A DNA stretch of 64,000 nt from a virus. The position numbers and the translations under genes are program-made. Below the pieces are notes generated by a model. That model worked only from the letters and a program-made list of their open reading frames with translations. It was not told where the DNA came from and ran no database searches. Below are positions 2,960 to 51,216 of this stretch, piece after piece (position 1 is the first letter of the stretch; each line of letters opens with the position of its first letter). Where the stretch lies: the IMG/VR virus record IMGVR_UViG_3300023174_006137, positions 62,001 to 126,000 of that record, one strand, 5' to 3'.

Positions 2960-4103
2960 TGATACAATAAACTCAGAAGATATTTCTGAATTGATAGAAT
3001 GGTTAAAAACAAATCCTAAACTTACAAAGGGTAATCTTACTGTTCGGTTTGAAGATGAGTGGTCAAAATGGTTAAACAGAAAATATTCTGTTTTCTTAAA
3101 TTCAGGTTCTTCTGCCAATTTAGCTATGATTTACAGTCTTTTAATCTCAAAAAAATTAAAAAATAATAAAATAATTTTACCTACTGTATCTTGGGTTACT
3201 ACTGTAACTCCTGCCATGCATTTTGGAATGGAGCCAATACTTTGTGAATGTGATAAAGATACACTAGGTGTAGATATAGAATATTTGGAAGATTTGTTTA
3301 AAAAACACAATCCGTCAATACTAATGATAGTACATGTGTTAGCATTTCCTAATAAAATGGCAGAAATTATTAATTTGTGTAATCAATATGATGTTATCTT
3401 GCTAGAAGATTCTTGTGAATCAATCGGTTCAACATACAATGATGTTAAAACAGGCAATTTTGGATTAATGAGTTCTTTCTCTTTTTACTACGGTCATCAT
3501 ATGTCAACTATTGAAGGTGGTATGGTTTCCACGGATAATGAAGAATTATATAATATATTATTATCAATAAGAGCGCATGGGTGGGATAGAGATTTTAATA
3601 AAGAATTACAAAATGATTTTAGAACAAAAAATAATGTAACAGATTTTAAAGCATTATATACATTTTATTATCCTGGATTTAATTTAAGATCTACTGATTT
3701 GCAAGCATTTATTGGATTAAATCAAATAAAAAAAATTGATAATTTTTCTAAAATTAGAAATAAAAATTATCAAATATATAATTCAAAAATTAAAAATAAT
3801 TTTTGGAAAATTAAAAAATTAGATAATTGTTTTTATTCTAATTTTGCATATCCAATAATAACACCAAATATTGAAAATCTTTCACAAGAACTTATTAAAA
3901 ATAATGTCGAGTGTCGTCCTTTGGTTTGTGGTTCAATAGGATTACAACCATTTTGGAAAAATTATTATGGACAACAAAATTTTAATTTTGGTGATATAGT
4001 CCATAATTATGGACTGTATTTGCCTAATAATCAAGATATAAAAGAACAAGAAATTGATTTTATATGCGATATTGTTAATAAATATACTAATTATGAAATT
4101 TAA
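2937..4103 (+). CDS. colD: ColD-like PLP-dependent 3-dehydratase (DegT/DnrJ/EryC1/StrS fold)
   Basis: 388 residues, full length for the DegT/StrS sugar aminotransferase family. PLP-site motifs are in order: NSGSSANL (55-62), ILPTVSWVTTV (80-90), the LLEDSCESIGS aspartate (about 157) and SFSFYYGHHMSTIEGG (180-195). The catalytic lysine expected after SFS is histidine (H187-H188). That substitution is the hallmark of GDP-4-keto-6-deoxymannose 3-dehydratase ColD and of the E1/RfbH enzymes, which remove the C3 hydroxyl instead of transaminating. With GDP-mannose 4,6-dehydratase in the same operon, the product would be a GDP-3,6-dideoxy-4-keto sugar, a precursor of colitose-type sugars. The substrate is inferred from the neighbour gene. 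Confidence 0.85.
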   Translation: MKHIKLVNDTINSEDISELIEWLKTNPKLTKGNLTVRFEDEWSKWLNRKYSVFLNSGSSANLAMIYSLLISKKLKNNKIILPTVSWVTTVTPAMHFGMEPILCECDKDTLGVDIEYLEDLFKKHNPSILMIVHVLAFPNKMAEIINLCNQYDVILLEDSCESIGSTYNDVKTGNFGLMSSFSFYYGHHMSTIEGGMVSTDNEELYNILLSIRAHGWDRDFNKELQNDFRTKNNVTDFKALYTFYYPGFNLRSTDLQAFIGLNQIKKIDNFSKIRNKNYQIYNSKIKNNFWKIKKLDNCFYSNFAYPIITPNIENLSQELIKNNVECRPLVCGSIGLQPFWKNYYGQQNFNFGDIVHNYGLYLPNNQDIKEQEIDFICDIVNKYTNYEI

Positions 4104-4884
4104 TGAATTTAACTTTACTGATAAAGATATAATAACAACAGATGGTTATTTAGATTTTTGTCTGAGTAATAATATATGTTATGTCAAAACTGATTTTTTT
4201 TATTTAAATCAACAATTTAATTGGAGAGGAGAAGTACATCCAAAATTTTTAAATAAAAATATAGTAATAGGACACTCAGATTATCCTATTGTAGATGAAA
4301 TATCGTTACGTTTTGATAAAGTATTATGTATAAATAAAGTTTCTAAAAATAAAAATACATTAGGAATGCCACTTGGTATTTGTAACGATACAGATGAATC
4401 AGAGTTACATAGAATATTTGGTAATAAAAATTGCTTAATAGAAACTAAAGATAAAAATATAGAAAAGAAAAATATAGTTTATCTAAATTTTAATATAGGT
4501 AATTTCACAAGTGAAAGAAAATTAGTTTTTGATTTATTTAACAATAAAGATTTTGTATTAAAAACAGAAATTGAACATAGTTTTGAGGGTAGAAAAAAAT
4601 ACTTAGAAGAAATAAAATCTTCAAAATTTGTATTGTGTCCCAGAGGAAACGGAATAGACACCCACAGAATATGGGAAACTTTATATATGGGTAGTATACC
4701 AATTGTTAAATATGAAGATGCTCACGAATTATTTACTGATTTGCCAATTTTATTTATAAAAGAATGGTCTTTTTTAAATAAAAATTTTTTAGAAGATAAA
4801 TACACAGAAATTATAAATAGTGATTGGAATTTAGATAAATTAAAGCAAAGTTATTGGAATAATTTCATAATAAATAATATGTAA
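4093..4884 (+). CDS. exostosin-like (GT47-type) glycosyltransferase
   Basis: I chose ATG 4093 rather than the upstream in-frame 4054 because it overlaps the previous stop by only 11 bases. That leaves 263 residues. The diagnostic part is near the C-terminus: KFVLCPRGNGIDTHRIWE, then LYMGSIPIVKYED, which matches the exostosin pattern 'cPrG.g.dt.RlwEal..GciPVi' that binds the nucleotide sugar. The N-terminal half is AT-rich and divergent. It probably adds a sugar to the glycan made by this island. Specificity is unknown. Confidence 0.7.
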   Translation: MKFNEFNFTDKDIITTDGYLDFCLSNNICYVKTDFFYLNQQFNWRGEVHPKFLNKNIVIGHSDYPIVDEISLRFDKVLCINKVSKNKNTLGMPLGICNDTDESELHRIFGNKNCLIETKDKNIEKKNIVYLNFNIGNFTSERKLVFDLFNNKDFVLKTEIEHSFEGRKKYLEEIKSSKFVLCPRGNGIDTHRIWETLYMGSIPIVKYEDAHELFTDLPILFIKEWSFLNKNFLEDKYTEIINSDWNLDKLKQSYWNNFIINNM

Positions 4885-4887
4885 CAT

Positions 4888-5643
4888 ATGAATGATAATA
4901 TCGGAATAGGAATTATGACTTCTATAAATTTAAAGGAAAGATTTACAGCCTGTAAAAATACTTGGCTTAGAGATTTTAGTAATGTTTATTTATTTGGAGG
5001 AAATATACCATGTGATGGATTGATTTCTATAAAAGAAGCTGGAGAAGATTGGTCTAGTGCGTTATTGAAACAACAATTAGGATTAAAATATATGTATGAA
5101 GATAATCCTAATTATGATTGGTATAGTATATCTGGATGTGATAATATCCTTTTTAAAAATAGAGTTATTAATGAGTTAAATAAATTTAATCCTAACACAG
5201 ATTTATTAATATCACAACCTTGTGGATTATGGAATGATTATCCACAAATACATGAAATAAATTCATCAAAAAATGATGGTATAAATTTTAGAGCAATCGC
5301 TGGTGGTGCTAGTTTTTTCATAAGTAACTCGTTGATGAAAAAATGTTATTATATAATTGATCAATTTAATAAAAAATGGAATAATATATCTGGTAGTAAT
5401 TATGGTTGCTCTGATGTAGCACTATCTTATATGTTAAAATTGTACTTTGATATAGAAGTAACCCATTCTCCATATATGCTAAGCCAGAATATTGAACATT
5501 ATCAGGGTGCAATTATGGGCGATGAAAACTCGAAATGGTACTTAGATTTTCCAATTTCGTTGTCAGAAGCTATAAAAAGCCCAATTAGTCTACATTATAT
5601 AAAACCAGAAAAAATGGAAGAAATTTATAAAAAATATATTTAA
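4888..5643 (+). CDS. GT31/Fringe-like glycosyltransferase
   Basis: 251 residues. Motifs resemble beta-1,3-glycosyltransferases of the GT31/Fringe group. An N-terminal R-x-x-A-C-x-x-T-W segment (RFTACKNTW) occurs near residue 19. YDWYSISGCDNILF stands where the metal-binding DDD normally sits (here C-D-N, degenerate). GGASFFISNSLMKK and a downstream GCSDVALSYMLKLYF correspond to the 'GgaG.vls...c' and 'pDvtlg.c...lgi' motifs. The metal-binding acidic triplet is weakened, so activity is uncertain. Spacing to both neighbours is 3-4 bases. Confidence 0.6.
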   Translation: MNDNIGIGIMTSINLKERFTACKNTWLRDFSNVYLFGGNIPCDGLISIKEAGEDWSSALLKQQLGLKYMYEDNPNYDWYSISGCDNILFKNRVINELNKFNPNTDLLISQPCGLWNDYPQIHEINSSKNDGINFRAIAGGASFFISNSLMKKCYYIIDQFNKKWNNISGSNYGCSDVALSYMLKLYFDIEVTHSPYMLSQNIEHYQGAIMGDENSKWYLDFPISLSEAIKSPISLHYIKPEKMEEIYKKYI

Positions 5644-5646
5644 AAC

Positions 5647-6342
5647 ATGATTGTAATAGCTACAAATAATAGTTGCGTTGAGAGAATATGTAGGGGCGAA
5701 AATATACCTAGAAAAAATTTTTTAGATTCGGTGTTAAAATCAATTAATAACATTGATTATAATGGTAAAGTGTTAGTTGTTGACACAGGTTCAACAGATG
5801 CGGAAAGTATAGATTTTTTAGAATTGTTAAAAGAAAAGGAATTTAATTTTAATTTGAAAATAGATAGGATTACACAATCTTTTCCAATGAATGCATATAT
5901 GTATGCATTTGAAAATTATGATTGTGATGAATATATTTTCATACAAGATTCAATAGAAATAAAAAATAAAGAATTTATTGAGGTAATCAATAATTCATTA
6001 AATGAAAATAATTTAATATGTTGGGTAGTGTGTTCAACTTGTGGATTTGATACCGAAGAACAAAAACAATTTGTTGTTAATGCAACTGGTGGTAGTGTTT
6101 ATGATAAATTAATTTTTGGTCCAATGTTTTTTGGTAAAAAAAATATTATAAAAAAATTATTTAACCAAATAAAAATAAAACCTTCTATTAAAAGCGAAGA
6201 AAGTGGTATGGAAAGAGGACTTGGTGTATTATGCAAAATGAATAATATTGATATAATACCAATAGATGGTGAATATAATTTTTATGCAATGGTAAATAAT
6301 TCATATAAATATATAACAAAATATCACGCAGATAGAAAATGA
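5647..6342 (+). CDS. GT2-like glycosyltransferase
   Basis: 231 residues. The N-terminal half follows the GT2 pattern: MIVIATNNSC start, a helix, then KVLVVDTGSTD (about residues 40-50) equivalent to 'iiVDDgStD', and EYIFIQDSIEI near 100 at the DxD position, where only one acidic residue remains. The C-terminal half is unassigned. The stop overlaps the next ATG (ATGA). It belongs to the continuous series of sugar-transfer genes. Loss of one DxD acid could change metal use. Confidence 0.6.
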   Translation: MIVIATNNSCVERICRGENIPRKNFLDSVLKSINNIDYNGKVLVVDTGSTDAESIDFLELLKEKEFNFNLKIDRITQSFPMNAYMYAFENYDCDEYIFIQDSIEIKNKEFIEVINNSLNENNLICWVVCSTCGFDTEEQKQFVVNATGGSVYDKLIFGPMFFGKKNIIKKLFNQIKIKPSIKSEESGMERGLGVLCKMNNIDIIPIDGEYNFYAMVNNSYKYITKYHADRK

Positions 6343-7034
6343 AAATATGTATTCTATATACTGGACAAATTAGAATAAATGAAATAGAAAAAAATATTAA
6401 TTTTTTAATGGATGATGAAAATGAATATTTTATTCTTTTAAATACTTGGAATGATCAAGATGTGAGCGAATTTAAAAATATTTTTAGTAATTCAATAATT
6501 AAATTTAATGAACGTCCTACGGATGATTTGGTTAATAAAATCTCAGAAAATGCTAATATTGTTTACCCTAATTGTTATATAAATCCATTTTATAATTATA
6601 CTTGTAGTTTATACATAAAATATAAATCTATCGAATTTTTAGAAGAAATTAATATTGCTTTTGATGTTATAGTTATATTGAGGACAGATACTAAATTATG
6701 GAAAAATATTTCTTATTTATATAAAAATATAGAAGATAATAGTATATATACGCCGATTGGTCCAACATTTGATATATCAGGTGATGTTCTTTACGGTCAA
6801 AATTCTTGTTCCGATGTAATATTTTTTGGAAAACCAGAAACTATAAAATTAGCTTTAAACCAAATAAATAATATCGATGTAACTAAATATAATGGCAATT
6901 ATATTCATCCAGAAACAAGTTTATGTAACTACTTTAAATATTTAAATTTAAATATAGTAAGATGTCAATTTGATGCTTTTTTAGTACCAAGAGATGGAAA
7001 TCATGAATTAATAGGTTATAATTTTATATTATGA
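6339..7034 (+). CDS. WavE-like putative glycosyltransferase
   Basis: 231 residues. It opens with MKICILYTGQIR and carries FDVIVILRTDTKLW in the middle, the R-x-D signature seen in WavE-type lipopolysaccharide-synthesis proteins. The same organisation (SGYIRTF opening, IIIKYRPDLNI core) recurs in the N-terminal half of the protein encoded at 8976-10409, so the two are probably paralogues within this island. ATGA overlaps occur at both ends. The family is thought to act in surface polysaccharide assembly; donor and acceptor are unknown. Confidence 0.5.
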   Translation: MKICILYTGQIRINEIEKNINFLMDDENEYFILLNTWNDQDVSEFKNIFSNSIIKFNERPTDDLVNKISENANIVYPNCYINPFYNYTCSLYIKYKSIEFLEEINIAFDVIVILRTDTKLWKNISYLYKNIEDNSIYTPIGPTFDISGDVLYGQNSCSDVIFFGKPETIKLALNQINNIDVTKYNGNYIHPETSLCNYFKYLNLNIVRCQFDAFLVPRDGNHELIGYNFIL

Positions 7035-8236
7035 TAGTAGATTTAAAAGAAAGACTAATAAAAAACTATTTACCTGCGGATGAGAATGGCAGAGAAATTA
7101 ATTTATATAAACTAAAAAATGTATCACCATATGGTGATACATTTTATCCAAATTGTCTATTTAATGATGAACAAGGCAATATATTTAATCCGTCAAGTGA
7201 GAAAGTAATGTCATTGAATGGTATTACTTTTATAAATAAAAATCAAAAAAATGAAATTATAAACAAAGAAGAAACACCATTATTTTTCTTTATTTATAAC
7301 ACTGATAATTATTATCATTTTGTTTATGATTCTTTGCCTTATTTAATCACTTTTTTAGATTTAAAAGAAAAAGTGTCAAATATTAAATTATTAATGAATT
7401 ATCCAAATTTTACTAAAACAGAATTTTATAAATTCATTATCGAGTTTTTAAATTTATTGAATATAAGTATGGATGATATATTGATAATAGATAAAAACAC
7501 AATTTATAGCGAAATTTATATATCTTCATCATATACTCATGATATAGATTCAAATTTACCACCAAGAAAAGAAATATATGATTTTTACCAATCAATAGTT
7601 AAAAACATAAAACAAAATTATACAAATACTAAAGATTTGCCAAAAAAGATATATATATCCAGAAGAACATGGATACATGGTGACACTTCAAATATAGGAA
7701 CAAATTATACTACTCGTAGAAAATTAATAAATGAGGATGATTTAGTTGATACATTGAAAAAATATGGATTTAAAGAAATTTTTACTGAAAATTTAGGCAC
7801 TATAGAAAAAATATTATTATTTAATAATGCAGATATAGTAATTGGTCCAATAGGTGGTGGATTATGTAATGTTTTATTTTCTAAAAAAGATTGTAGATTG
7901 ATATCAATAAACTCTCCGACATTTATGGATATAAATAAAAGATTTAAATATTGTTTTTCTAATATTAATACAGACTACTTTGATGAAACGGAGCACATAG
8001 AAAAAAATATTTGGAAAAAATGGATGCGTGTAAAATCTGGTAATATAGTTGGAGAAATAGAAAATGTAGAAGAGGAATATATAGACGTGATGTATACTGA
8101 CGAATCAATTGCTGGATGGAATAATGGTATCAATTATAAAAAAATTAAATTAAAAAAACAAGATTCTACGCCATTAGATAATGGGTTAAACTCAAATTGG
8201 ATTGTAGATATAAAAAAATTGATTTCTTATATATGA
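7031..8236 (+). CDS. GT61 (DUF563) family glycosyltransferase
   Basis: 401 residues. The C-terminal part has the GT61 signature: YISRRTWIHGD followed by TTRRKLINEDDLVDTLKKYG, then ENLGTIEKILLFNNADIVIG and PIGGGLCNVLF. In the family this appears as 'isR....RrilNe.el...l...gf..v..e.lsf.eQi.lf..a.viig.hGagl.n.lf'. The final 90 residues, with a TDESIAGWNNG stretch, form an extension after the usual domain end. Genes up- and downstream overlap by 4 bases. Confidence 0.8.
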   Translation: MIVDLKERLIKNYLPADENGREINLYKLKNVSPYGDTFYPNCLFNDEQGNIFNPSSEKVMSLNGITFINKNQKNEIINKEETPLFFFIYNTDNYYHFVYDSLPYLITFLDLKEKVSNIKLLMNYPNFTKTEFYKFIIEFLNLLNISMDDILIIDKNTIYSEIYISSSYTHDIDSNLPPRKEIYDFYQSIVKNIKQNYTNTKDLPKKIYISRRTWIHGDTSNIGTNYTTRRKLINEDDLVDTLKKYGFKEIFTENLGTIEKILLFNNADIVIGPIGGGLCNVLFSKKDCRLISINSPTFMDINKRFKYCFSNINTDYFDETEHIEKNIWKKWMRVKSGNIVGEIENVEEEYIDVMYTDESIAGWNNGINYKKIKLKKQDSTPLDNGLNSNWIVDIKKLISYI

Positions 8237-14568: not shown

Positions 14569-15657
14569 ATGAATAAAAAAGCATTTATCACAGGAATCAC
14601 AGGACAGGACGGCTCTTATCTAGTCGAACTTTTAATATCAAAAGGATACACAGTACATGGTTTAAAAAGACGTTCTTCTTCTTTTAATACTTCAAGAATT
14701 GATCACTTGTATCAAGATCCACATGAAGAAAACAAAAAATTAATTCTTCATTATGGTGATATGACAGATTCTTCTGGATTAATTAGATTAATTCAACAAA
14801 TTCAACCAGACGAAATTTATAATTTGGCAGCACAATCACATGTCAAAGTTTCATTTGAAACACCAGAATATACAGCTAATGCTGACGGATTAGGTACACT
14901 TCGTATATTAGAAGCAATTAGAATTTTAGGCTTGGAAAAGAAAACTAAATTTTACCAAGCATCAACTTCTGAAATGTTTGGTAGAGTTCAAGAAATTCCA
15001 CAAACTGAAAAAACACCTTTTTATCCAGTATCGCCGTATGGTTCAGCTAAATTATACGCACACTGGATAACAAAAAATTATCGTGAATCTTATAATATGT
15101 TTGCTTGTTCTGGCATTCTTTTCAATCATGAAAGTCCGGTTCGTGGTGAAACATTCGTAACGAGAAAAATTACAAGAGCTGTTGCCGCTATTTATCATGG
15201 TTTAAATAACGTGCTTTATATTGGAAATCTCGATGCTGAAAGAGATTGGGGACACGCAAAAGATTATGTTGAGGGAATGTGGCTTATGTTACAACAAGAA
15301 ACACCGGATGACTATATTTTAGCAACTAATCGCAAAATGTCAGTTAGAAGATTTATTGAATTATCATTTGCAGAAATAGGTAAAAAAATAAAATGGTCTG
15401 GCGAAGGTGTTGATGAAATAGGATTTGATGTTAATACTGGTGATGTTTTAGTTAAAATTGATCCTAAGTATTTTAGACCAAATGAAGTTGATTTACTTTT
15501 AGGTGATTATACAAAAGCAAAAACAGAATTAGGTTGGGAACCTAAATATACAGTAGAAGAAATAATTAAAGAAATGATAGAATCGGATATTAAATTATTT
15601 GAAAAAGATAAATATTTACAAAACGGTGGATTTGAGATTTTTAATCATTACGAATAA
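14569..15657 (+). CDS. gmd: GDP-mannose 4,6-dehydratase
   Basis: 362 residues, full length. [16 protein letters not shown] is the NAD-binding glycine motif, [18 protein letters not shown] is the family-specific loop, the catalytic triad is in STSEMFG and [15 protein letters not shown] (Y-x-x-x-K), and [16 protein letters not shown] is typical of GMD. It converts GDP-D-mannose to GDP-4-keto-6-deoxy-D-mannose, the substrate of ColD-like enzymes. It is the best-conserved gene of the island and has richer codon use than its neighbours, which suggests a more recent acquisition. A strong terminator follows. Confidence 0.95.
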
Positions 15658-15680
15658 TTTAATATGTGAAATTTTTAACA

Positions 15681-15716
15681 AAAAAGCAAATATTTTAACA
15701 AAATATTTGCTTTTTT
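15681..15716 (+). terminator. intrinsic terminator of the glycan operon
   Basis: AAAGCAAATATTTT and its exact inverted copy AAAATATTTGCTTT are separated by AAC and followed by T6. The hairpin closes the operon after gmd and precedes the nuclease-helicase gene. It falls within a longer ORF that runs on from inside gmd, which supports the later start at 15761 for that gene. Confidence 0.85.
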
Positions 15717-15760
15717 CGTTTATTTATACTATTTTCGTAAAAAATTATCTTAAAAGAAGT

Positions 15761-18067
15761 ATGAATAAAATCACACACGGAGGTATCTATAAAATACATA
15801 GAGCCAAATTATTTGAAAATGTTAATAGTTACACAGATTTAGTAAAAACTATCAAAAAATGGGGTAAAAATAACCCAAATGAAAATGACACAGGTTACAA
15901 TAAATTAGTAGGTATGGCTTATGAAATTTTCTTCCATTTTTGGGGATTAACTTGTGGTCATAATGTGGGTGTTAGTATAAAAGATTTGCAAGATACGAGT
16001 TATGATGAACATAATCGTGGTGATGACTTTTTATACACCAGTTTATTTGATGAACCTGGTGGAATACAGGTTAAATTTCGTTCTTCTGGTATTTATCAGT
16101 TTCATAATGGAGCATTAGATGGTTTTTTACAAAAAACACGTGCCGTGAATCACATGTGTCGTCCTAATAATACAATATTATTTATAAGTATAGACGATCA
16201 TCCAAAATTATTTCATTATGCTTATGATGCGGCGATAAGGAGAGAAATAAGAATAATTGATAGAAAAGTACAAGAATATTATATAAACCTTGAACCAGAC
16301 TTTTGGAATAGATTTAGAGAATGTATAAAAGAATCAGCAAAAAAAGAATTCCTTGATGACCCTGAACTAAGAGATGTGCAAAAAACTATCTTATATGGTA
16401 ATCAATTTTATAAAGGTACACAACAAGTTATTAATAGGCTAACAGAAAAAGGAAGAGTTGAAGCTTCAACCGCTACCGGTAAAACACTATGTATTAAAAA
16501 AGATATTGAAAATGCGTTTAATACTAAAAGAAAAATTGTTGTATTAACAATACCATGGCGAGCATTGATAGGGCAAACTTTTACAGATTATTATACACAT
16601 AAATTATTTGGTTGGCAAGACAAACAAGGTGTGATTCATAATCAAGATAAACCATCTTGCGTGGTTGTTATGTCAGGCGAAAATTTGTGTTATGATGATG
16701 AAATAGCTGATGTGCATCAATGTTTAACTTCTGAACTTTTGGAAGGAAAAATTACTTCAAATTTAGTTAAAGATAAAAAAACTCTTATTATTATAACTAA
16801 GGATTCTTATGATAAATGGTATGATAAAGAAAAAAATAATGGTGTTTTCACAAGCTTAATTGAAAAAAAATTAATCAATAAAGATGATGTTTTTGAAATA
16901 TTTGACGAATATCATAACATGATTCCAATTACTGGTGATAGAGATAAACATCTTTTAACTGCTAATTTTTTACAAACTTTATCTGAAAGAAATTCAGGAA
17001 CAATTTTTTATAGCGCAAGTAATAAAAATGGTGAATTAGTTAGTTCTTTTAACGAAAAACAATTTGGAACACTTTTAGCTAAAATAACAAGAAATGATCT
17101 AAGAGTCAGAGGTTATGTTTGTCCTGGTTTAGAATTTCGTTTTATATCAATAAAAAATATTTATGCCTCGGCTGAGGATAGACGAAGAATGGAAAATAAA
17201 GGAGTTGATTTAAATTTAGCACAAATAGAAGCAGCTGGTATAGTTACGGCATATGAAGATATTGTCCGCAATTACTATAAACAGCCTAATATGATGACAT
17301 TTGGTAGTCATGTTCCGGGTTGCGCATTTATAAATGCTGATGAAGGAATAAAAGATAAATTACAAGATGTTAATTTACATCTTATGTATTGCGACACGCC
17401 AAATACAGATAGAGCAAAAATTATTGACATTATTAAAAAAACAGGAAATAATATTTTAAATCAACATTCTGTAGCTGGCGAAGGTGTTAATATTCCCAAT
17501 TTACATTCTATTATTATACATCGTGGAATGAGTTTTAAAAGTTTGCAACAAGCAATTGGTAGAAGTGATAGAGCATTACTTGAAGATACTATAAACTTTC
17601 AAAAAGGTCTTATAACATTAGATAATCCAATTGGATGGAAAAAATATTGGAATATAGTTTATGTAATCATTGATGATGATGATGATAAAAATACACAACG
17701 CTTAATTATAGAGTTAGCTAAATATCTTTTAAATAATGGTATTCCGGAAAATAAATGGGCTTTTTCTGCAGTTGAATATGAGCAAAAAGTTGGTGTAGAT
17801 AATAAAATGCAAAAAGGAGCTTATCGTGATTTTGAGACAAATTTTGATAGGAATAAATTGGATAATATGGTCAATAAAGCTATTATTAAAGCAAAAGAAG
17901 AAGTTGAAAATGAATTAGCATCGCTTGATGACATTTATTTTAAAGAAATTGATTTTGAAAAAGAAATGGCTAATTTCGAAGTTGAAAAATGGTATAACAA
18001 TTTAAGTACTGAAGAATTATACCAATATGCAAAAAATATTTGTGAAGATAAAAATGACAATAGATAG
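15761..18067 (+). CDS. SF2 helicase with N-terminal Mrr-type PD-(D/E)xK nuclease
   Basis: The reading frame is open from 15599, but that stretch overlaps gmd and the terminator; ATG 15761 gives 768 residues. Residues 50-105 read LVGMAYEIFF (E55), NRGDDFL (D88/D89) and GIQVKFRS (Q103-V-K105), the E...D...QxK catalytic set of Mrr-type nucleases. The helicase has TATGKT (238-242), VLTIPWRALIGQT (Ia), DEYH (382-385), YSAS (III), SVAGEGVNIP (V) and QAIGRSDR (597-604), as in restriction-type translocases. It overlaps the methyltransferase-like gene by 14 bases, so the two resemble the cutting and recognition parts of a restriction-like system. Whether it acts on host, rival or self DNA is unknown. 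Confidence 0.8.
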   Translation: MNKITHGGIYKIHRAKLFENVNSYTDLVKTIKKWGKNNPNENDTGYNKLVGMAYEIFFHFWGLTCGHNVGVSIKDLQDTSYDEHNRGDDFLYTSLFDEPGGIQVKFRSSGIYQFHNGALDGFLQKTRAVNHMCRPNNTILFISIDDHPKLFHYAYDAAIRREIRIIDRKVQEYYINLEPDFWNRFRECIKESAKKEFLDDPELRDVQKTILYGNQFYKGTQQVINRLTEKGRVEASTATGKTLCIKKDIENAFNTKRKIVVLTIPWRALIGQTFTDYYTHKLFGWQDKQGVIHNQDKPSCVVVMSGENLCYDDEIADVHQCLTSELLEGKITSNLVKDKKTLIIITKDSYDKWYDKEKNNGVFTSLIEKKLINKDDVFEIFDEYHNMIPITGDRDKHLLTANFLQTLSERNSGTIFYSASNKNGELVSSFNEKQFGTLLAKITRNDLRVRGYVCPGLEFRFISIKNIYASAEDRRRMENKGVDLNLAQIEAAGIVTAYEDIVRNYYKQPNMMTFGSHVPGCAFINADEGIKDKLQDVNLHLMYCDTPNTDRAKIIDIIKKTGNNILNQHSVAGEGVNIPNLHSIIIHRGMSFKSLQQAIGRSDRALLEDTINFQKGLITLDNPIGWKKYWNIVYVIIDDDDDKNTQRLIIELAKYLLNNGIPENKWAFSAVEYEQKVGVDNKMQKGAYRDFETNFDRNKLDNMVNKAIIKAKEEVENELASLDDIYFKEIDFEKEMANFEVEKWYNNLSTEELYQYAKNICEDKNDNR

Positions 18068-19547
18068 AGAAATAATTTATAATATAAATTTCCAAAAATG
18101 TAAATTAAATCCTTATTTTAATTTTTTTGAAATAACAAATTTGGAAAATCCAGAGAATATTAAAAAAGCATATTTTCTGTTAAATAATGATAAAAAATAT
18201 GCTTTGAATATTTTAGAAATTATTAAAAAGAAAATTTCTAATCAAATTTCTTGGTATGATTATTTTGAAGAGATAATAGATATATATCAAAAATTTAATT
18301 CAAAAACATCAGATTTTATACCACTTTATATGGTTGATAAAATATTAAGTAATTATACATCAAAAGATTTTTCAAATACATTATTAAAATGGTTTAATCC
18401 ATCTAACGCAGAGGGTATCTTTATATTTCGCTTAATTCAAAAATTATTAGAAAATTTAAAAGATATAAAATGGCTCGAAAATGAAAATATTCGTTATAAA
18501 TGGATAATTGAAAAAATGATATATGTTTGTGAAAATGATTCATTGTCAATGTTTAATTATATGTTATTAATTGATCCTGATTGTAAATTTAAATTAAATG
18601 CATACTATGGTTCTTATATAACAAAATCTTTTGATAAAGTAAAAGAAAATGATTGGAAATTAGGTACTGATACTCGTATTTTTGGAATTCCTCCATCTAA
18701 AAATACTTTGAGTAGAAGTTGTGTTAAATTTATTAATAAATCTTTAACCATTTCTAATTATATTAACTTTATAACACCTCATTCTATAGCATGGTCAATT
18801 AGTAAAACTATTACGGAATTGAGAAAAAAAATGCAAACAACCGAAAATTATATAGATAATAGAGTTGAAAGCAAAGATGCATTTACAAAAGGAAAAATTA
18901 TAGTAACAACTATTAAATCAGAAAAATTAAACACTAAAATACTAAACAAAGACGGTGTAATAGAAATAGATAACAAAGATATACACAAAAGACTTCCAAT
19001 TAAAAATAAAGTAGTAACTTCTATAATAAATAAAATAGATTCTAAGCCAAATAAACTAGAATATGTGTATGATTTTAAAAATCATACTAATAAAACAACC
19101 TCTAAAGAGTTATTAAAATATGGGTTAGCTTCGGAAACACAGGATGATATTTTTAAATATCCAATGCATCATTCTTCTTCTAAAATTCTCTATGTTAGAG
19201 AAGAATTCAAAACTTGGAAAAAATTAAAAGTAGCTTTTAATTATAGTGGAAATTTTATAGGCAAAAATAGAAAAGGCGGAGAACATATGTTTTCAACAAC
19301 AAATCTTATAGGAAAACAAATGGTGGGAGTATTAGTTAATTCACAAGAAGAAGCTAATATAATTATTCATAATTATTCTAATAAAATTTTTGAATTTTAT
19401 ATAAAAAATGAAAAATCAAGTGGATTTAATACTGGACTTCATTATCTACCTAAATTGCCTCTTGTGAAACTTTCGGATAAAGATCTGTATACTTATTTTG
19501 ATTTTACACAAGAAGAAATTAATTTAATTGAAAAAATTAAGATATAA
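18054..19547 (+). CDS. degenerate Eco57I-type adenine methyltransferase-like (target recognition) protein
   Basis: ATG 18054 is preferred over 18027 because it reduces overlap; 497 residues. The layout follows Eco57I-type methyltransferases. FIPLYMVDKIL (88-98) matches 'fTP..vvdkml'. FNPSNAEGIFIF (114-125) sits where motif I DPxxGxGxF belongs. RIFGIPPSKN (209-217) sits where the catalytic NPPY belongs, and NFITPHSIAW (238-247) matches the following 'fItP' strand. The C-terminus has the recognition-domain ending (LPKLPLVKLSDKDLYTYFD then FTQEEINLIEKI). Motif I has lost Asp and Gly, and NPPY has become IPPS, so I infer no methylation. It may keep DNA recognition for the upstream nuclease-helicase. 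Confidence 0.6.
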   Translation: MTIDREIIYNINFQKCKLNPYFNFFEITNLENPENIKKAYFLLNNDKKYALNILEIIKKKISNQISWYDYFEEIIDIYQKFNSKTSDFIPLYMVDKILSNYTSKDFSNTLLKWFNPSNAEGIFIFRLIQKLLENLKDIKWLENENIRYKWIIEKMIYVCENDSLSMFNYMLLIDPDCKFKLNAYYGSYITKSFDKVKENDWKLGTDTRIFGIPPSKNTLSRSCVKFINKSLTISNYINFITPHSIAWSISKTITELRKKMQTTENYIDNRVESKDAFTKGKIIVTTIKSEKLNTKILNKDGVIEIDNKDIHKRLPIKNKVVTSIINKIDSKPNKLEYVYDFKNHTNKTTSKELLKYGLASETQDDIFKYPMHHSSSKILYVREEFKTWKKLKVAFNYSGNFIGKNRKGGEHMFSTTNLIGKQMVGVLVNSQEEANIIIHNYSNKIFEFYIKNEKSSGFNTGLHYLPKLPLVKLSDKDLYTYFDFTQEEINLIEKIKI

Positions 19548-20180
19548 TTAAGTATTATTTAAAATAATTGGCACAATATTAGGGTTACTATTACCAAGTA
19601 CAGCTGGATTTCCGACATCAACAATTTTGGTTTTATTTAATAAGAAATCTAATTCAATAAAATTAAAATTAAAGGTAATCGTAAATTCAGCTGGATTTAT
19701 CTTTTGAACCGAATAATCAAAAAGACAATCAGATAAATTCATAGCAATTAATTGATAAAACCTTATTTGATATACAGAATTTCTCCACATATCAAGTGTT
19801 GTTATAGTAAATGGTTCGATAAATAAATTTTGAGTATCTAAATAATGTTTTTGAAAAATATCATACATTAACATATAATTAGCATGTCCATCTACATCAC
19901 GAAAAGTAACCGTAATTTCATGTGATGCAACTATATCTTGAACTGGAGTAGCTGGTTTATAAGAAATTTTCTTACCTCTCATAATTGTTTGCGAAGGTGG
20001 TGTAATAGCTAGTCCTGGAAAACTTACAGATTTAATTGTTGAGTTTAAATAATCAATAATATTTTCATATGGCATTTTATATTTTTCCAAAAATCCACGG
20101 TAATCATTTATTACCGTTGGTGGTAAAAAATCTGATGGAAATTGAAATATAAATGAACTACTTAATGTAGAAAGTCTCAT
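19548..20180 (-). CDS. putative tail tube / baseplate tube-type protein
   Basis: 210 residues starting with MRLS, the same four residues as the neighbouring structural protein. The segment SVSFPGLAITPP, then GKKISYKP, then HEITVTFRDVDGHANYMLMYDIFQ resembles the T4 gp19/gp54 tube fold: an FxxPGL loop, a G..i.y strand, then 'itvtfrd.dg..n'. The central EPFTITTLDMWRNSVYQIRF looks like the continuation of that barrel. The promoter region has TATATAATA words before the start. This is a structural guess from pattern; a tail or baseplate protein is likely and the exact role is not certain. Confidence 0.45.
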   Translation of the reverse strand: MRLSTLSSSFIFQFPSDFLPPTVINDYRGFLEKYKMPYENIIDYLNSTIKSVSFPGLAITPPSQTIMRGKKISYKPATPVQDIVASHEITVTFRDVDGHANYMLMYDIFQKHYLDTQNLFIEPFTITTLDMWRNSVYQIRFYQLIAMNLSDCLFDYSVQKINPAEFTITFNFNFIELDFLLNKTKIVDVGNPAVLGNSNPNIVPIILNNT

Positions 20181-34437: not shown

Positions 34438-35274
34438 TTAAAAATTTAAATATAAAGATTCTGAAACAATACTATTATTTGAATTTCCAACAACTCGTCT
34501 AAAACTTGAATTACCACTTATTAGATATTCATGTCTTTTAAAACTTGGTGGTATATGATCAACTTCACTATCATTTACTTTACCATCATAACTCAATAAC
34601 CATTTACAATTTAGATTATTTAACCAATTAATGAATTTGTTATTATCAAAATTATTAAAATACATTCCTTTTGTTTGTTGATATGGCGGATCGCAATATA
34701 TAATATCATCATGTTCAAAATAACTATTTAAATTACCAATACTAATAAACTCATAACTTACGTTATAAAACGTAATTTTTTTACCTGACATTAACTCTGA
34801 ATAATATAGAACAACTTTTTCTACTTCATCTGGATGCATACCAGGTCTTGAAAAATGACAAGAATTATTGAACTCTCCTAATTTATTATAACGAGGCATA
34901 CCATTTGTGGTTGTTCTCATTATCCAATAAAAATCTTCTGGTTTTTTATTCAAATTGAAATCAGTTCTTACTTTTTGAAAATAATCTTTTCTTTGTTGTA
35001 TATCACCTTTATTAAAATTATTATAATGTTGTTTGTATGTCCATATAAGAAAATATGGATTATTTTGAATCATTTGCCATACATCAATTAATTCTTTATT
35101 AACATCAGATAAAACAAAAGTGTCAACTTCTATATCTGATTCTAATAATTCTAAAAAAATTGAACCACCACCTAAAAAAGGTTCAAAATAATAATTTATT
35201 TTTTTGGGCAAAAAAGAAATTATTTGTTTTGCCTGGCTATTTTTTGAGCCGCTCCATTTCAACAAATTACTCAT
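34438..35274 (-). CDS. dam: DNA adenine methyltransferase (Dam type)
   Basis: 278 residues, the length of T4 Dam/E. coli Dam. LLKWSGSKNSQAKQIISFLP (the 'lkw.GgK..l...i...iP' opening), YFEPFLGGGSIFLELL (motif I, SAM), FVLSDVNKELIDVWQ (motif II) and DDIIYCDPPYQQTKG (catalytic DPPY) are all intact. It methylates N6 of adenine, probably in a short palindrome such as GATC, and may protect phage DNA. Its start overlaps the next upstream gene by 8 bases. Confidence 0.92.
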   Translation of the reverse strand: MSNLLKWSGSKNSQAKQIISFLPKKINYYFEPFLGGGSIFLELLESDIEVDTFVLSDVNKELIDVWQMIQNNPYFLIWTYKQHYNNFNKGDIQQRKDYFQKVRTDFNLNKKPEDFYWIMRTTTNGMPRYNKLGEFNNSCHFSRPGMHPDEVEKVVLYYSELMSGKKITFYNVSYEFISIGNLNSYFEHDDIIYCDPPYQQTKGMYFNNFDNNKFINWLNNLNCKWLLSYDGKVNDSEVDHIPPSFKRHEYLISGNSSFRRVVGNSNNSIVSESLYLNF

Positions 35275-44947: not shown

Positions 44948-44966
44948 AATTTTTAATACCATTTTG

Positions 44967-45038
44967 TAATCCCATACTGGAACGATCAGTATTCTTCAGG
45001 GTCAAAACCTGACGCATCACCTTAATGCTTTGGGATTA
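44967..45038 (-). tRNA. tRNA-Gln(TTG) with swapped T-loop pair
   Basis: Acceptor TAATCCC/GGGATTA, D-stem GCAT/ATGC with GG in the loop, anticodon stem TCAGG-TTTTGAC-CCTGA (anticodon TTG). The T-loop reads ATCGTTC instead of TTCGANN: A54 and U58 replace U54 and A58. The T arm also has an extra base before the acceptor. No CCA is encoded. Directly upstream of glnS. Confidence 0.75.
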
Positions 45039-45044
45039 TATTTG

Positions 45045-45117
45045 TAGTCGGACTAGGAGTCAAACCCAGTCTACGAAGGCCAAATCTTCGTGTGCGCATC
45101 GGTACACTATCCAACTA
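45045..45117 (-). tRNA. tRNA-Gln(TTG)
   Basis: Acceptor TAGTTGG/CCGACTA, D arm AGTGTACCGATGCGCAC, anticodon arm CGAAG-ATTTGGC-CTTCG (TTG), T arm CTGGG-TTTGACT-CCTAG. U56 replaces the conserved C56, and A32 is uncommon. The body resembles phage tRNA-Gln genes. Confidence 0.8.
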
Positions 45118-45123
45118 TGTAGT

Positions 45124-45205
45124 TGCCAAGACAGGACTCGAACCTGTATTTACTTCTCGTCCTCCGCTTTCAAAGAGCGGGATGCTACCATTACACCACT
45201 TGGCA
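45124..45205 (-). tRNA. tRNA-Gln(TTG) with enlarged variable region
   Basis: Acceptor TGCCAAG/CTTGGCA, anticodon arm CCGCT-CTTTGAA-AGCGG (TTG), T arm ACAGG-TTCGAGT-CCTGT. The variable region is about 16 nt (AGGACGAGAAGTAAAT), much longer than the usual 4-5 nt of tRNA-Gln. 82 nt in all. A terminator hairpin lies 5-40 bases upstream. Confidence 0.85.
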
Positions 45206-45210
45206 ATAAA

Positions 45211-45244
45211 AAAACCGTTCAATCAAATCAGATTGAACGGTTTA
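45211..45244 (-). terminator. intrinsic terminator upstream of the tRNA-Gln trio
   Basis: Minus strand AAACCGTTCAATC / GATTGAACGGTTT, 6-base loop, T7. It lies between the homing endonuclease stop and the tRNA-Gln genes. Its upstream arm (TCAATCTG, 45236-45229) can also pair with CAGATTGA (45272-45265), which spans the endonuclease stop codon. Confidence 0.8.
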
Positions 45245-45264
45245 GACAATAAAATCTCACACCA

Positions 45265-46191
45265 TCAATCTGGTTTAAATAATTGTTGTTGTTGAGAAGT
45301 TAAAGTTTTCATTTTTTTATAATAATTTATAAATTTTTCTATTTCAGTTTTTATATATTCTTTTCCTGCTTCGTTATTTATTGATTGCCATTTTATTCTA
45401 TAAATATTAAAATGTTTTAATAAATTTTTATCTCTTTCATTATCATGTTCAACTCTATATTCATGTTGTTTACCATCTATTTCTAAATCAATATTTCCTT
45501 CTTTAATATAGAAATCTAAAAAATAATTTCCATTTCCTTCTATATTATATTCTTTTTTTATTATAGTTTTATTAGGCTCATATTTTATGCCATTGTTTTC
45601 TAATACCATTTTGAAAAACTTTTCTGGATAACTTTCAATATTTCTTGATTGCCAACCTTTATGTGTTCCATTTTTTATTCTTTCTTTAACTGAATCTCTT
45701 AATTTATTTTTATATTCCTCGCTTGTAAATTGACACTTTTTACTACAATATTTTCGATTAATATTTTTTCCAGTATATGTTTTTTTACAATTGGGACATT
45801 CTTTTATGTATTCCTCTTCATTATATTTTTTATTCCACGGAATATTATTTTTTAATGTATTAGATATTTTTTTACATCTTTCCTCATATTTTTCTTTATC
45901 AAAATTAGTATTATTTTTACCATGTTGATAATAAGAATTTGAACATGACGATGAACATGTTTTCTTACCATTTTCTGTTGTTTCAAATTCGTTAAAACAA
46001 ATAGGACAAATAAGTTTAATTTTTTGGTATTTTCTATTTTTGTTTTTATTTTCAAAAATAGATTTATTAAATCCATTTTGTTCTAAAACTTCTGCTGCCT
46101 TTTTATTGCTTCGTCCATTAGAATAACCATATAATTTTATGGCTAAGTCATTAATGGAAAAACTTTCATTTATAATTTTAATGATATCCAT
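45265..46191 (-). CDS. homing endonuclease inserted in tRNA array 1
   Basis: The frame opens at 46344 inside tRNA genes; ATG 46191 (MDIIKIINESFSINDLAIKL), preceded by a TTTTAATATATATCTT word, gives 308 residues. It holds three C-x-x-C zinc pairs (CPICFNEFE; CPNCKKTYTGKNINRKYCSK) and a C-terminal nuclease, KFFKMVLENNGIKYEPNKTI, then NGNYFLDFYIKEGNIDLEID and GKQHEYR, of the PD-(D/E)xK/Vsr-like type. It sits between tRNA-Pro/Asp and tRNA-Gln genes, splitting the array; the leader peptide of the array still contains Gln codons. A selfish insertion is the likely explanation. Confidence 0.75.
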   Translation of the reverse strand: MDIIKIINESFSINDLAIKLYGYSNGRSNKKAAEVLEQNGFNKSIFENKNKNRKYQKIKLICPICFNEFETTENGKKTCSSSCSNSYYQHGKNNTNFDKEKYEERCKKISNTLKNNIPWNKKYNEEEYIKECPNCKKTYTGKNINRKYCSKKCQFTSEEYKNKLRDSVKERIKNGTHKGWQSRNIESYPEKFFKMVLENNGIKYEPNKTIIKKEYNIEGNGNYFLDFYIKEGNIDLEIDGKQHEYRVEHDNERDKNLLKHFNIYRIKWQSINNEAGKEYIKTEIEKFINYYKKMKTLTSQQQQLFKPD

Positions 46192-46236
46192 AAGATATAT
46201 ATTAAAATTGTCGGAGAAAGTTTTTCCGAACCTGGT

Positions 46237-46311
46237 CGAGAAGGTGAGATTCGAACTCACGAGTTGTCTTGGTCCCAAACCAAGCCGGGTACCTGACTCC
46301 CGAACTTCTCG
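46237..46311 (-). tRNA. tRNA-Pro(TGG)
   Basis: Acceptor CGAGAAG/CTTCTCG, anticodon arm CTTGG-TTTGGGA-CCAAG (TGG), T arm GTGAG-TTCGAAT-CTCAC. Normal class I body. Fourth and last tRNA before the endonuclease insertion. Confidence 0.93.
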
Positions 46312-46318
46312 TTTTTGC

Positions 46319-46391
46319 GGTCTGTACCGGGTACGATCCGGCAACCTTCCCCGTGACAGGGGGATATTGTATCCATTTCTACTAACAGACC
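46319..46391 (-). tRNA. tRNA-Asp(GTC) with swapped T-loop pair
   Basis: Acceptor GGTCTGT/ACAGACC, anticodon arm TCCCC-CTGTCAC-GGGGA (GTC), T arm GCCGG-ATCGTAC-CCGGT: A54/U58 instead of U54/A58. A second Asp gene with a normal T-loop is its neighbour. Confidence 0.88.
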
Positions 46392-46400
46392 ATTTTTTGC

Positions 46401-46477
46401 AGTGACGACGGGACTCGAACCCGCAAACCTCCCGATAGACAGTCGGGCATTCTGACCTAAAATTGAACTACGCCACT
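46401..46477 (-). tRNA. tRNA-Asp(GTC)
   Basis: Acceptor AGTGGCG/CGTCACT, anticodon arm CCCGA-CTGTCTA-TCGGG (GTC), T arm GCGGG-TTCGAGT-CCCGT. Normal T-loop. Confidence 0.92.
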
Positions 46478-46483
46478 ATTTCG

Positions 46484-46569
46484 TCTGGGTGACAGGGCTC
46501 GAACCTGCATAAGATGTTAATCATTCTCCTGTCCAAGAGGAGTCGGCTTCCATTGCCTTCACACCCAGA
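46484..46569 (-). tRNA. tRNA-Pro(TGG) with long variable arm
   Basis: Acceptor TCTGGGT/ACCCAGA, D-stem GGC/GCC, anticodon arm CTCCT-CTTGGAC-AGGAG (TGG), T arm GCAGG-TTCGAGC-CCTGT. Variable region about 17 nt, AATGATTAACATCTTAT, with a GAT/ATC stem. Class-II-like length (86 nt) with a proline anticodon is abnormal. First tRNA after the array 1 terminator. Confidence 0.85.
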
Positions 46570-46573
46570 AATT

Positions 46574-46605
46574 AAAAAAACCTATTAGCTTTTGACTAAC
46601 AGGTT
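46574..46605 (-). terminator. attenuator terminator of tRNA array 1
   Basis: Minus strand AACCTGTTAG-TCAAAAG-CTAATAGGTT followed by T7, 27 bases after the leader ORF stop and directly before tRNA-Pro. Its upstream arm GTTAGTC (46600-46594) can alternatively pair with GACTAAC (46653-46647) in the leader ORF. Confidence 0.8.
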
Positions 46606-46631
46606 TTAAATAATACAATTTAAAAAATCGT

Positions 46632-46721
46632 TTATATAAACACATAGTTAGTCCACTCCTTATCAGGATCCTGATCCGGTTGTTGTTGTGGAACTACTTG
46701 TATGTTTATATTGTTTTTCAT
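46632..46721 (-). CDS. 29-residue leader peptide of tRNA array 1 (Pro/Gln/Asp-rich)
   Basis: 30 codons including stop. Residues 8-20 are QVVPQQQPDQDPD; residues 11-20 are exclusively P, Q and D. The transcription unit that follows encodes tRNA-Pro x2, tRNA-Asp x2 and tRNA-Gln x3. Gln codons are four CAA and one CAG; Asp codons are all GAT. The codons after this run (TGG ACT AAC) hold the segment able to pair with the terminator arm. A host-type promoter is 60 bases upstream. This is the arrangement of an attenuation leader peptide; its role is translation-coupled sensing rather than a protein function. Confidence 0.75.
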   Translation of the reverse strand: MKNNINIQVVPQQQPDQDPDKEWTNYVFI

Positions 46722-46782
46722 TTTATTATAGTATATATTGTTTTTAAAAAATGCTTTTTTGCTATTGTTTAATTTTGTAGTG

Positions 46783-46812
46783 CAAAGATACATAAAAGTT
46801 TGAAATCAGCAA
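46783..46812 (-). promoter_or_regulatory. Bacteroidota-type promoter of tRNA array 1
   Basis: Minus strand TTG (46812-46810), 19-base spacer, TATCTTTG (46790-46783). Nearly identical in sequence to the promoter of array 3 (both read CTTTTxxGTATCTTTGCA around the -7 element). Confidence 0.75.
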
Positions 46813-46867
46813 AAATTTTTTTTTTAATTTTTACATATTAATTTGCATAATATAATATATAGTAAAT

Positions 46868-48751: not shown

Positions 48752-49050
48752 ATTTTATCAGTAATTTTAGAAATACTTTTATCAATATCTGCAAAAGATG
48801 GAATAGAATTTCCTATATAAATAAATGCAATATTCTTATTCTTAACTATTGATTTCCTAACAGATTCTTTCATTAATCTTTTGATGTAATTTCTATCAAC
48901 CGCTCTTTTGAACTTTTTAGAAGAAACCGCAAAAAGAAATGAACTATTAGATTCAGATTCTAAAATTTTAACCATTATTACATCACTTGAAATGGTTTTA
49001 CCATTTTTAAACAATTCGTCAATTATTATCTTATTTTTTAAAGTTTTCAT
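48748..49050 (-). CDS. rnpA: RNase P protein component
   Basis: 100 residues. Opening LKNKIIIDELFKNGKTISSD and the signature FAVSSKKFKRAVDRNYIKRL followed by MKESVRKS match RnpA (the RNR motif in the form R-N-Y-I-K-R-L), followed by the final strand NIAFIYIGN. RnpA binds RNase P RNA and the 5' leader of pre-tRNAs. It is slightly shorter than bacterial RnpA at the C-terminus. It shares a transcript with the gene upstream, which has a host-type early promoter. In this genome, with many tRNA genes, it could boost or redirect host RNase P. I see no RNase P RNA gene in the window. Confidence 0.9.
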   Translation of the reverse strand: MKTLKNKIIIDELFKNGKTISSDVIMVKILESESNSSFLFAVSSKKFKRAVDRNYIKRLMKESVRKSIVKNKNIAFIYIGNSIPSFADIDKSISKITDKI

Positions 49051-49054
49051 AAAA

Positions 49055-49426
49055 TTAATTTAATAAATCATTAATTCGGTTATATCGTCTCCATGCTATT
49101 CGTGCTGATTCATATTTTTCAGTTCCTTTTACTGATTGTCCAGTATAAGTTCCAATATATGCTATGTTTCCAGTCATTATTTTTTTATCTAAACATTCAT
49201 CACATATAGCTATGATGAATTCATCCGTATCAAATTTACTACCATATCCGGCACTAATTAGGTCTACTACACCATCTTTCCACATTTGTGAGCCAGCATC
49301 TAATATAATTTCTTCTTCTGGTTCACCATGAAATCCTATCTTTTCTTTATTGAAAACAACATCTTCTTCATTTTTACCTTCTATAAGATATAATGAAATC
49401 TTTTTATCGCAACAAATACACATCAT
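49055..49426 (-). CDS. small zinc-binding protein with C-terminal RINDLL motif
   Basis: 123 residues (or 122 from the second Met). CICCDKKISLY and FIIAICDECLDKK provide two C-x-x-C pairs for one zinc. The end SARIAWRRYNRINDLLN carries the RINDIL-type tail. Host-type promoter 5 bases upstream of the ATG; rnpA follows 4 bases after the stop, so the two are co-expressed early. No family recognised. Confidence 0.6.
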   Translation of the reverse strand: MMCICCDKKISLYLIEGKNEEDVVFNKEKIGFHGEPEEEIILDAGSQMWKDGVVDLISAGYGSKFDTDEFIIAICDECLDKKIMTGNIAYIGTYTGQSVKGTEKYESARIAWRRYNRINDLLN

Positions 49427-49431
49427 AAATG

Positions 49432-49462: not shown

Positions 49463-49490
49463 AAAATATTTAAAGTAATATATAAATTAA

Positions 49491-51215: not shown

Positions 51216-51216
51216 T

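What the first reader, a model, noticed from the sequence alone, without database searches (positions are those of the whole stretch)
15761..19547. Nuclease-helicase paired with a methyltransferase whose active site is gone
The first protein has an Mrr-type E...D...QxK nuclease and a complete SF2 motor. The second keeps the Eco57I-type layout and C-terminal recognition region but has NPSNAEGIF for DPxxGxGxF and GIPPS for NPPY. A restriction-like cutting module with a recognition subunit that cannot methylate would not protect its own targets. Possible uses: attack on host or competitor DNA that carries a site absent from this phage, or a processing role in replication. A separate, intact Dam methylase in the same window may provide protection. 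The pair sits directly after an acquired glycan island, consistent with a cargo region.
Basis: partly seen in the sequence, partly recalled or inferred. Interest (0 to 1): 0.75.

Follow-up and report, generated by a model that had tools for sequence, protein, structure and literature searches.

The report
Phage restriction module that cannot methylate
This bacterial virus carries a DNA-cutting, DNA-tracking enzyme next to a partner that looks like the methylase of a restriction system but has lost its catalytic residues; related viruses carry the same machine with a working methylase, so this looks like a restriction system with its self-protection step removed.

Summary
P0001 (15761-18067) is an Mrr/PD-(D/E)xK nuclease fused to an SF2 motor. 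P0002 (18027 or 18054-19547) has an adenine-methyltransferase fold with IPPS where the family has NPPY. The new result is the family. Other phage contigs, cultured cyanophages (Bellamy, S-CAM7, ACG-2014f) and one Bacteroidetes MAG contig carry the same parts as separate genes: nuclease, helicase and Eco57I-like methylase, the last often split into a motif-I chain (M1) and an NPPY chain (M2). All 51 distinct M2-type relatives keep N-x-P-[YFW]; P0002 alone has lost it, and the 159-kb record holds no second M1/M2 copy. Degenerate motif I by itself proves little, because many M2 chains lack it. P0001 keeps the nuclease and motor residues. P0002 keeps an open frame, non-catalytic conserved helices and the C-terminal motif, but sits on the longest branch of the tree. 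Two distant relatives of this phage have an empty site where the pair sits. Best reading: a sequence-directed, ATP-dependent DNA cutter, Type ISP-like in parts, that kept its recognition subunit and lost modification. Decay and a non-restriction role are not excluded. Target, substrate and source of self-protection are unknown.

The parts
15761..18067 (+). P0001, 768 aa: N-terminal Mrr/PD-(D/E)xK nuclease fused to an SF2 (DExH) helicase-like motor
   Evidence: TTG-extended ORF 15599-18067, ATG taken at 15761
15761..16360 (+). nuclease domain (about aa 1-200); catalytic E55 (15923-15925), D89 (16025-16027), Q103 (16067-16069), K105 (16073-16075)
   Evidence: HMM of stand-alone relatives hits at E 5e-9; residues invariant in 12 sequences; relatives match Pfam Mrr_cat / Mrr_cat_2; weak structural matches to PD-(D/E)xK enzymes
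16403..17740 (+). SF2 motor: Walker A ASTATGKT (16463-16486), DEYH (16904-16915), QAIGRSDR (17549-17572)
   Evidence: Pfam Helicase_C 2e-6, phrog_16 1.8e-19; cassette-helicase HMM 1.4e-19; conserved residues kept
18027..19547 (+). P0002, 506 aa (497 aa from ATG 18054): Eco57I/TaqI-type N6-adenine methyltransferase fold plus C-terminal recognition-like region, catalytic motif IV lost
   Evidence: M2 HMM 5e-33, M1 HMM 2e-7; AF2 and Foldseek
18396..18422 (+). degenerate motif I: NPSNAEGIF (relatives DPANGTGPF, DPCNGVGTF, DPCNGIGNF)
   Evidence: alignment A8
18687..18698 (+). lost motif IV: IPPS in place of NPPY
   Evidence: alignment A8; all 51 distinct M2-type relatives keep N-x-P-[YFW]
19473..19547 (+). 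conserved C-terminal motif (S)DKDLYTYFDFTQEEINLIEKI, kept in P0002
   Evidence: alignment A8; HMM alignment
18054..18067 (+). overlap of the P0001 end with the likely P0002 start (41 b if P0002 starts at 18027), suggesting translational coupling
   Evidence: sequence read
15680..15716 (+). AT-rich perfect hairpin followed by a T run between gmd and P0001, possible terminator isolating the pair (read by eye; below the G-C threshold of the scan)
   Evidence: sequence; not listed
14569..15657 (+). left neighbour: GDP-mannose 4,6-dehydratase, last gene of the glycan island
   Evidence: Pfam 2e-158
19548..20180 (-). right neighbour: tail tube gene, convergent; adjacent to gmd without the pair in L022/L023
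   Evidence: phrog_45 2.3e-7

Best explanation
The pair is a restriction-like DNA-cutting complex acquired as cargo. Inferred mechanism: P0002, a methyltransferase fold that no longer methylates, still binds a DNA sequence through its C-terminal region and docks P0001. P0001 then uses its SF2 motor to move along DNA and its Mrr nuclease to cut, as in ATP-dependent restriction enzymes of the Type ISP kind. Because no modification is made, the complex would act on any DNA with the site, such as host chromosome, plasmids or rival phages, during a lytic infection that need not preserve the cell. The phage would escape by lacking or masking the site. Shown here by sequence: the domains, the family-wide cassette, the unique loss of the catalytic residues and the insertion. 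Inferred: complex formation, DNA binding, cutting, targets and self-protection.
For: Homologous cassettes with the same parts: L036 and L057 in the order nuclease-helicase-methylase, L157 methylase-nuclease-helicase, and four-gene versions helicase-M2-nuclease-M1 or M1-nuclease-M2-helicase in cyanophages and marine contigs. Nuclease catalytic residues 4/4 kept and motor motifs kept in P0001, while P0002 alone among 52 M2-type proteins lost N and Y of NPPY. P0002 still keeps 39 of 72 columns invariant in three intact sisters, including the RYK..IIE..IYV.E block, and the C-terminal D..LY.YF..T.EEI..IE motif. About 6% of single substitutions in P0002 would create a stop and there is none, so a long neutral drift since the loss is unlikely. 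Insertion with an empty site in two relatives. Published Type ISP enzymes join Mrr nuclease, SF2 motor, gamma-class methylase and TRD, recognise a site, translocate and cut (PMC4872093, PMC4666363).
Against: No second virus with a dead P0002 was found, so conservation of the dead state is untested. P0002 has the longest branch in the tree (2.08 against a median of 0.55), as expected under relaxed constraint. It lost 33 of 72 sister-invariant residues, more than the catalytic ones. No biochemical data, no complex model and no known target. The virus record is a linear fragment, so a rescuing methylase could lie outside it.
Confidence: 0.5

Rival explanations
1. Recent decay: an acquired restriction-modification cassette whose methylase is being lost in this lineage, with the nuclease silent or tolerated, and no present function.
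For: All relatives found keep the motif; single instance; longest branch; the site is empty in two relatives, so the cargo is not needed.
Against: An R-M cassette that loses methylation first should be toxic to its carrier unless it is silent or the genome is immune. The frame is intact over 497-506 codons although about 6% of substitutions would make stops. Non-catalytic conserved blocks and the C-terminal motif are kept, and the nuclease and motor residues are kept.
Confidence: 0.2
2. Working restriction system with protection from elsewhere: another methylase (the Dam protein or one outside the record), or a modified base, shields the phage sites, and P0002 serves only as the recognition subunit.
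For: An intact D12-class Dam lies at 34438-35274 (CDPPY, Pfam 6e-30). The record may be a fragment. Separate chains carrying methylase motifs are normal in the family (M1/M2).
Against: Dam is of a different class from the cassette methylases. No second M1/M2 in the 159 kb. GATC is only one of several depleted palindromes.
Confidence: 0.15
3. Not restriction: a nuclease-helicase used in phage DNA replication, recombination or repair, with P0002 as a loading or DNA-binding factor.
For: The helicase is related at a distance to UvsW-like and solitary cyanophage helicases.
Against: Absent from two relatives at this site, so not an obligatory core gene there. The closest architecture by all parts is a nuclease-helicase-methylase cassette whose methylases are intact.
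Confidence: 0.08
4. DarB-like antirestriction: a methylase-helicase dyad that protects the phage genome from host restriction.
For: Methylase-SF2 dyads are a known antirestriction theme in phages (PMC5512222).
Against: DarB joins a methylase to a SWI2/SNF2 motor with LPD36 and is proposed to methylate; here methylation is lost and an Mrr nuclease with intact catalytic residues is fused to the motor.
Confidence: 0.07

Closest known systems
Type ISP restriction-modification enzymes (LlaGI, LlaBIII)
   Same: Mrr-family nuclease, SF2 motor, gamma-class N6-adenine methylase fold and C-terminal recognition region; the P0002 model matches LlaGI and LlaBIII
   Different: Two polypeptides instead of one; methylase catalytic motif lost; coupler not shown; phage cargo instead of bacterial defence
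Phage Mrr nuclease - SF2 helicase - Eco57I methylase cassettes (L036, L057, L157; Synechococcus phages Bellamy gp85-88, S-CAM7, ACG-2014f)
   Same: All parts homologous: nuclease HMM 5e-9, helicase 1e-19, M2 5e-33
   Different: There the nuclease and helicase are separate genes and the methylase is intact, often split into M1 + M2
GIY-YIG/T5orf172 - helicase - Eco57I systems of plasmids and gut phages (L004, L005, L028, L029)
   Same: Related methylase family and nuclease-motor-methylase logic
   Different: Different nuclease fold, NPPY intact, usually with a second methylase chain; PADLOC matches those of L029 as Type IIG
CglI (R.CglI + H.CglI)
   Same: Restriction complex of nuclease and SF2 motor acting with a recognition module that is not a methylase (PMC5737866)
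   Different: PLD nuclease and B3 DNA-binding domain; a bacterial restriction system
DarB of phage P1
   Same: Phage methylase-SF2 dyad (PMC5512222)
   Different: SWI2/SNF2 motor, no Mrr nuclease, protects phage DNA in cis

Membership tests
Phage Mrr-helicase-methylase cassette | Mrr/PD-(D/E)xK nuclease of this family with E, D, QxK | tested here: met
Phage Mrr-helicase-methylase cassette | SF2 helicase of the cassette family | tested here: met
   HMM 1.4e-19
Phage Mrr-helicase-methylase cassette | Eco57I-like methylase homologue next to them | tested here: met
   M2 HMM 5e-33
Phage Mrr-helicase-methylase cassette | Intact N-x-P-[YFW] motif IV | tested here: not met
   IPPS; 51 of 51 relatives keep it
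Type ISP restriction-modification | Single polypeptide | tested here: not met
   two ORFs
Type ISP restriction-modification | Mrr nuclease and SF2 motor in one chain | tested here: met
Type ISP restriction-modification | Catalytically competent gamma-class methylase | tested here: not met
   fold met, motif IV lost
Type ISP restriction-modification | Helical coupler and sequence-specific TRD | tested here: inconclusive
   C-terminal domain modelled and matched to CamA/LlaGI; no DNA-binding test; coupler not examined
Type ISP restriction-modification | ATP-driven translocation and cleavage | not testable with these tools
   needs biochemistry
DarB-like antirestriction | Methylase fused to a SWI2/SNF2 motor in one chain | tested here: not met
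   nuclease-motor fusion and a separate methylase-fold protein
BREX (PglX) | PglX methylase with PglZ and BrxC | not tested
   only structural similarity of P0002 to BrxX; immediate neighbours are gmd and tail tube

The most novel reading that the evidence does not exclude
A phage-borne restriction enzyme without modification: the methylase subunit has become a pure target reader for a fused nuclease-translocase, used during lytic growth against host, plasmid or rival-phage DNA, with the phage immune because it lacks or masks the site.
Probability: 0.33. Interest if true: 0.8.

Novelty: new variant of a known kind. Interest (0 to 1): 0.6.

Why it matters
Restriction enzymes are normally tied to a methylase that protects the carrier. 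The wider result is also useful: a nuclease-helicase-methylase cassette is present in cultured cyanophages (Bellamy, S-CAM7, ACG-2014f) in which the nuclease and most methylase genes are annotated as hypothetical.

Tried and rejected
Direct searches with P0001 and P0002 in phages, plasmids, IMG/VR and the Pfam, PHROG, NCBIfam, PADLOC and PDB libraries gave no close relative; progress came from weak plasmid hits and stepwise alignments. The C-terminal hits of P0002 in L006 and L007 lie under hypothetical proteins and in a 528-aa ORF without methylase motifs by eye, and were dropped as chance. The cyanophage helicases found first are mostly solitary SF2 helicases and do not define the system. 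Motif I loss as proof of inactivity was rejected, because many M2 chains lack it. L063, which seemed to lack motif IV, has NAPY. The joint nuclease+helicase alignment A7 misaligned the nuclease rows, so the nuclease domain was modelled alone (A9); that model is weak (pLDDT 64) and its fold hits are not significant. A search for P0001 in the records of L022-L024 and L036 found nothing, but it also missed L036, which encodes distant homologues, so it is uninformative. Palindrome depletion gave no specific clue.
Full report
WHAT IS THERE. The window is bases 62001-126000 of a linear 159,491-base IMG/VR virus record, 26% G+C, with a T4-like gp32 (by eye), a tail tube, an intact Dam and 24 tRNA genes. 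P0001 (15761-18067, 768 aa) and P0002 (18027-19547, 506 aa) are complete ORFs that overlap. A second ATG at 18054, preceded by GAAG and overlapping P0001 by 14 bases, is a likely start of P0002. Third-position G+C of both genes (0.15 and 0.12) is that of the phage.

DIRECT SEARCHES WERE NEARLY BLIND. Pfam sees only Helicase_C and, below cut-off, DEAD and ResIII in P0001; PHROGs gives a DNA helicase (1.8e-19); P0002 matches nothing. No phage, plasmid or IMG/VR relative appears at stringent thresholds. The seven plasmid hits of P0002, all weak, are all annotated Eco57I methylases, in long helicase-methylase fusions with a GIY-YIG/T5orf172-like start. Alignments built on these reached a stand-alone intact phage methylase, L024, then 45 viral loci and one Bacteroidetes MAG contig, L157.

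THE FAMILY. L036 (84-kb viral contig) carries nuclease 3169-3771, SF2 helicase 4151-5698 and methylase 5740-7365, the last with LDPANGTGPF and NPPY; it is the best P0002 relative found (8.7e-25; genes). L057 has the same order. L157 has methylase, nuclease and helicase in a row. Marine loci L061 and L069-L076 and the cultured cyanophages Bellamy (gp85-88), S-CAM7 and ACG-2014f have four parts: helicase, M2 (NPPY chain), nuclease and M1 (small motif-I chain); two of the marine contigs are cut before the helicase. Among named phages the nuclease was found only in Synechococcus phages, where it is annotated as hypothetical. Two of the nucleases reach Pfam's Mrr models, L036 above the curated cut-off (Mrr_cat) and L057 below it (Mrr_cat_2).

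P0001 IS THE FUSED NUCLEASE-HELICASE OF THIS CASSETTE. An HMM built from the stand-alone nucleases without P0001 finds it at 32.8 bits (5e-9); 1000 shuffles reach 8.1. The alignment runs from the N-terminal I-x-H to the FWN motif, and E55, D89, Q103 and K105 are invariant and kept. The cassette-helicase HMM finds P0001 at 1.4e-19 and the main motor residues are kept. The AF2 model of the nuclease domain alone is weak (pLDDT 64); EcoO109I, MUS81, MspJI and EcoT38I, all PD-(D/E)xK enzymes, are among its best fold matches, but none is significant.

P0002 IS A METHYLASE-FOLD PROTEIN WITHOUT THE CATALYTIC MOTIF. The M2 HMM gives 110.7 bits (5e-33) against 12.0 for the best shuffle, and the M1 HMM gives 2e-7, so P0002 corresponds to M1 and M2 joined, as in L036, L157 and L024. 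The AF2 model (pLDDT 78, pTM 0.72; core above 90) matches CamA, BpuSI, BrxX, MmeI, LlaGI, LlaBIII and M.TaqI. Aligned columns read NPSNAEGIF against DPxNGxGxF and DTRIFGIPPS against FDxIxGNPPY. All 51 distinct M2-type proteins longer than 250 aa keep N-x-P-[YFW]; the rarest forms are NSPY and NAPY. Here no other M1 or M2 exists in the 159 kb, though the record may be a fragment.

IS IT DECAY? Of 72 columns invariant in three intact sisters P0002 keeps 39. It loses the motif X block GEVxT, D124, G128, F215/D216, N221 and Y224, and keeps P125, G130, the motif II acid E169, both prolines, the RYK..IIE..IYV.E block and the C-terminal D..LY.YF..T.EEI..IE motif. By my count the 15 sister-invariant motif positions lose 10 and the other 57 lose 23; this is suggestive only. 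The frame is open although about 6% of single substitutions in it would make stops. If the ten motif changes had come by neutral drift, many stops would be expected; there are none. Against this, P0002 has the longest branch of the tree, 2.08 against a median of 0.55, and no second dead homologue is known. I read this as a lineage-specific loss of catalysis with retention of fold and probably of binding, not as proof of function.

CARGO. Two viral contigs with related gp32 (64%), tail tube (56%) and gmd (80% in L023) have gmd directly next to the tail tube with about 200 bases between; the pair sits exactly there in this phage. It is therefore best read as an insertion next to the glycan island; loss in the relatives is the other possibility. 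A perfect AT-rich hairpin with a T run separates gmd from P0001 (read by eye).

HOW IT MOST LIKELY WORKS. Type ISP enzymes join an Mrr nuclease, SF2 motor, coupler, gamma-class methylase and TRD, recognise an unmodified site, translocate and cut on collision (PMC4872093, PMC4666363). The pair has these parts apart from a demonstrated coupler, in two chains. With modification lost, P0002 would be a reader only, and the complex would cut any DNA bearing the site. A lytic phage can afford that if its own genome lacks or masks the site. Complex formation, recognition, translocation, cutting, target and protection are all inferred. It works like Type ISP; it is not a member, since the single chain and the competent methylase were tested and not met.

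NOVELTY. No paper found describes this phage cassette or a methylation-dead form (searches; subscription journals are mostly missing). Phage R-M genes, Type ISP, CglI and DarB are known. I therefore rate it a new variant of a known kind.

Noticed in passing
L062 3311-9817; L054/L055/L056 4829-7650: Tandem banks of Eco57I-like methylase genes (five in L062, two in L054) with near-identical first ~140 aa and divergent C-terminal halves behind a helicase gene: looks like a store of alternative specificities in one virus.
   Followed up: partly
L158 1766-5461 (Synechococcus phage Bellamy gp85-88), L159 4501-8242 (S-CAM7), L003 3155-7005 (ACG-2014f): Cultured or isolated T4-like cyanophages carry a four-gene helicase / M2 / Mrr-type nuclease / M1 cassette; the nuclease and M1, and M2 in two of the three phages, are annotated as hypothetical. 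The methylase is split into a motif-I chain and an NPPY chain.
   Followed up: yes
L028 7214-12328, L029 5217-10448, L004 2412-7488, L005 2442-7509, L063 3838-7589: Related systems with a GIY-YIG/T5orf172-like start on an SF2 helicase and two methylase-like chains; M2 often has a degenerate motif I (DPACKTG, DLYTKSG, DPAFANG) beside a separate motif-I chain, so catalysis may be shared between chains.
   Followed up: partly
L033/L034/L035 and L063: Motif IV variants NSPY and NAPY in otherwise intact cassette methylases.
   Followed up: no
L024 7133-7720: A 195-aa ORF just upstream of the intact phage methylase has a D...ELK pattern by eye and may be a different PD-(D/E)xK nuclease partner.
   Followed up: no
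whole 159-kb record: CGCG is absent (about 32 expected), and ACGT, GTAC, CTAG, GGCC and GATC are strongly depleted: general palindrome avoidance.
   Followed up: no
window 44966-54023: 24 tRNA genes with a glutaminyl-tRNA synthetase-like ORF (by eye) next to three tRNA-Gln genes.
   Followed up: no
L157 11826-14807: Next to the cassette in the Bacteroidetes MAG contig lie a large helicase-like ORF and an ORF translating a repeated unit (CILSNSARESQ), which looks like a CRISPR array read as protein; the contig may itself be viral or mobile.
   Followed up: no
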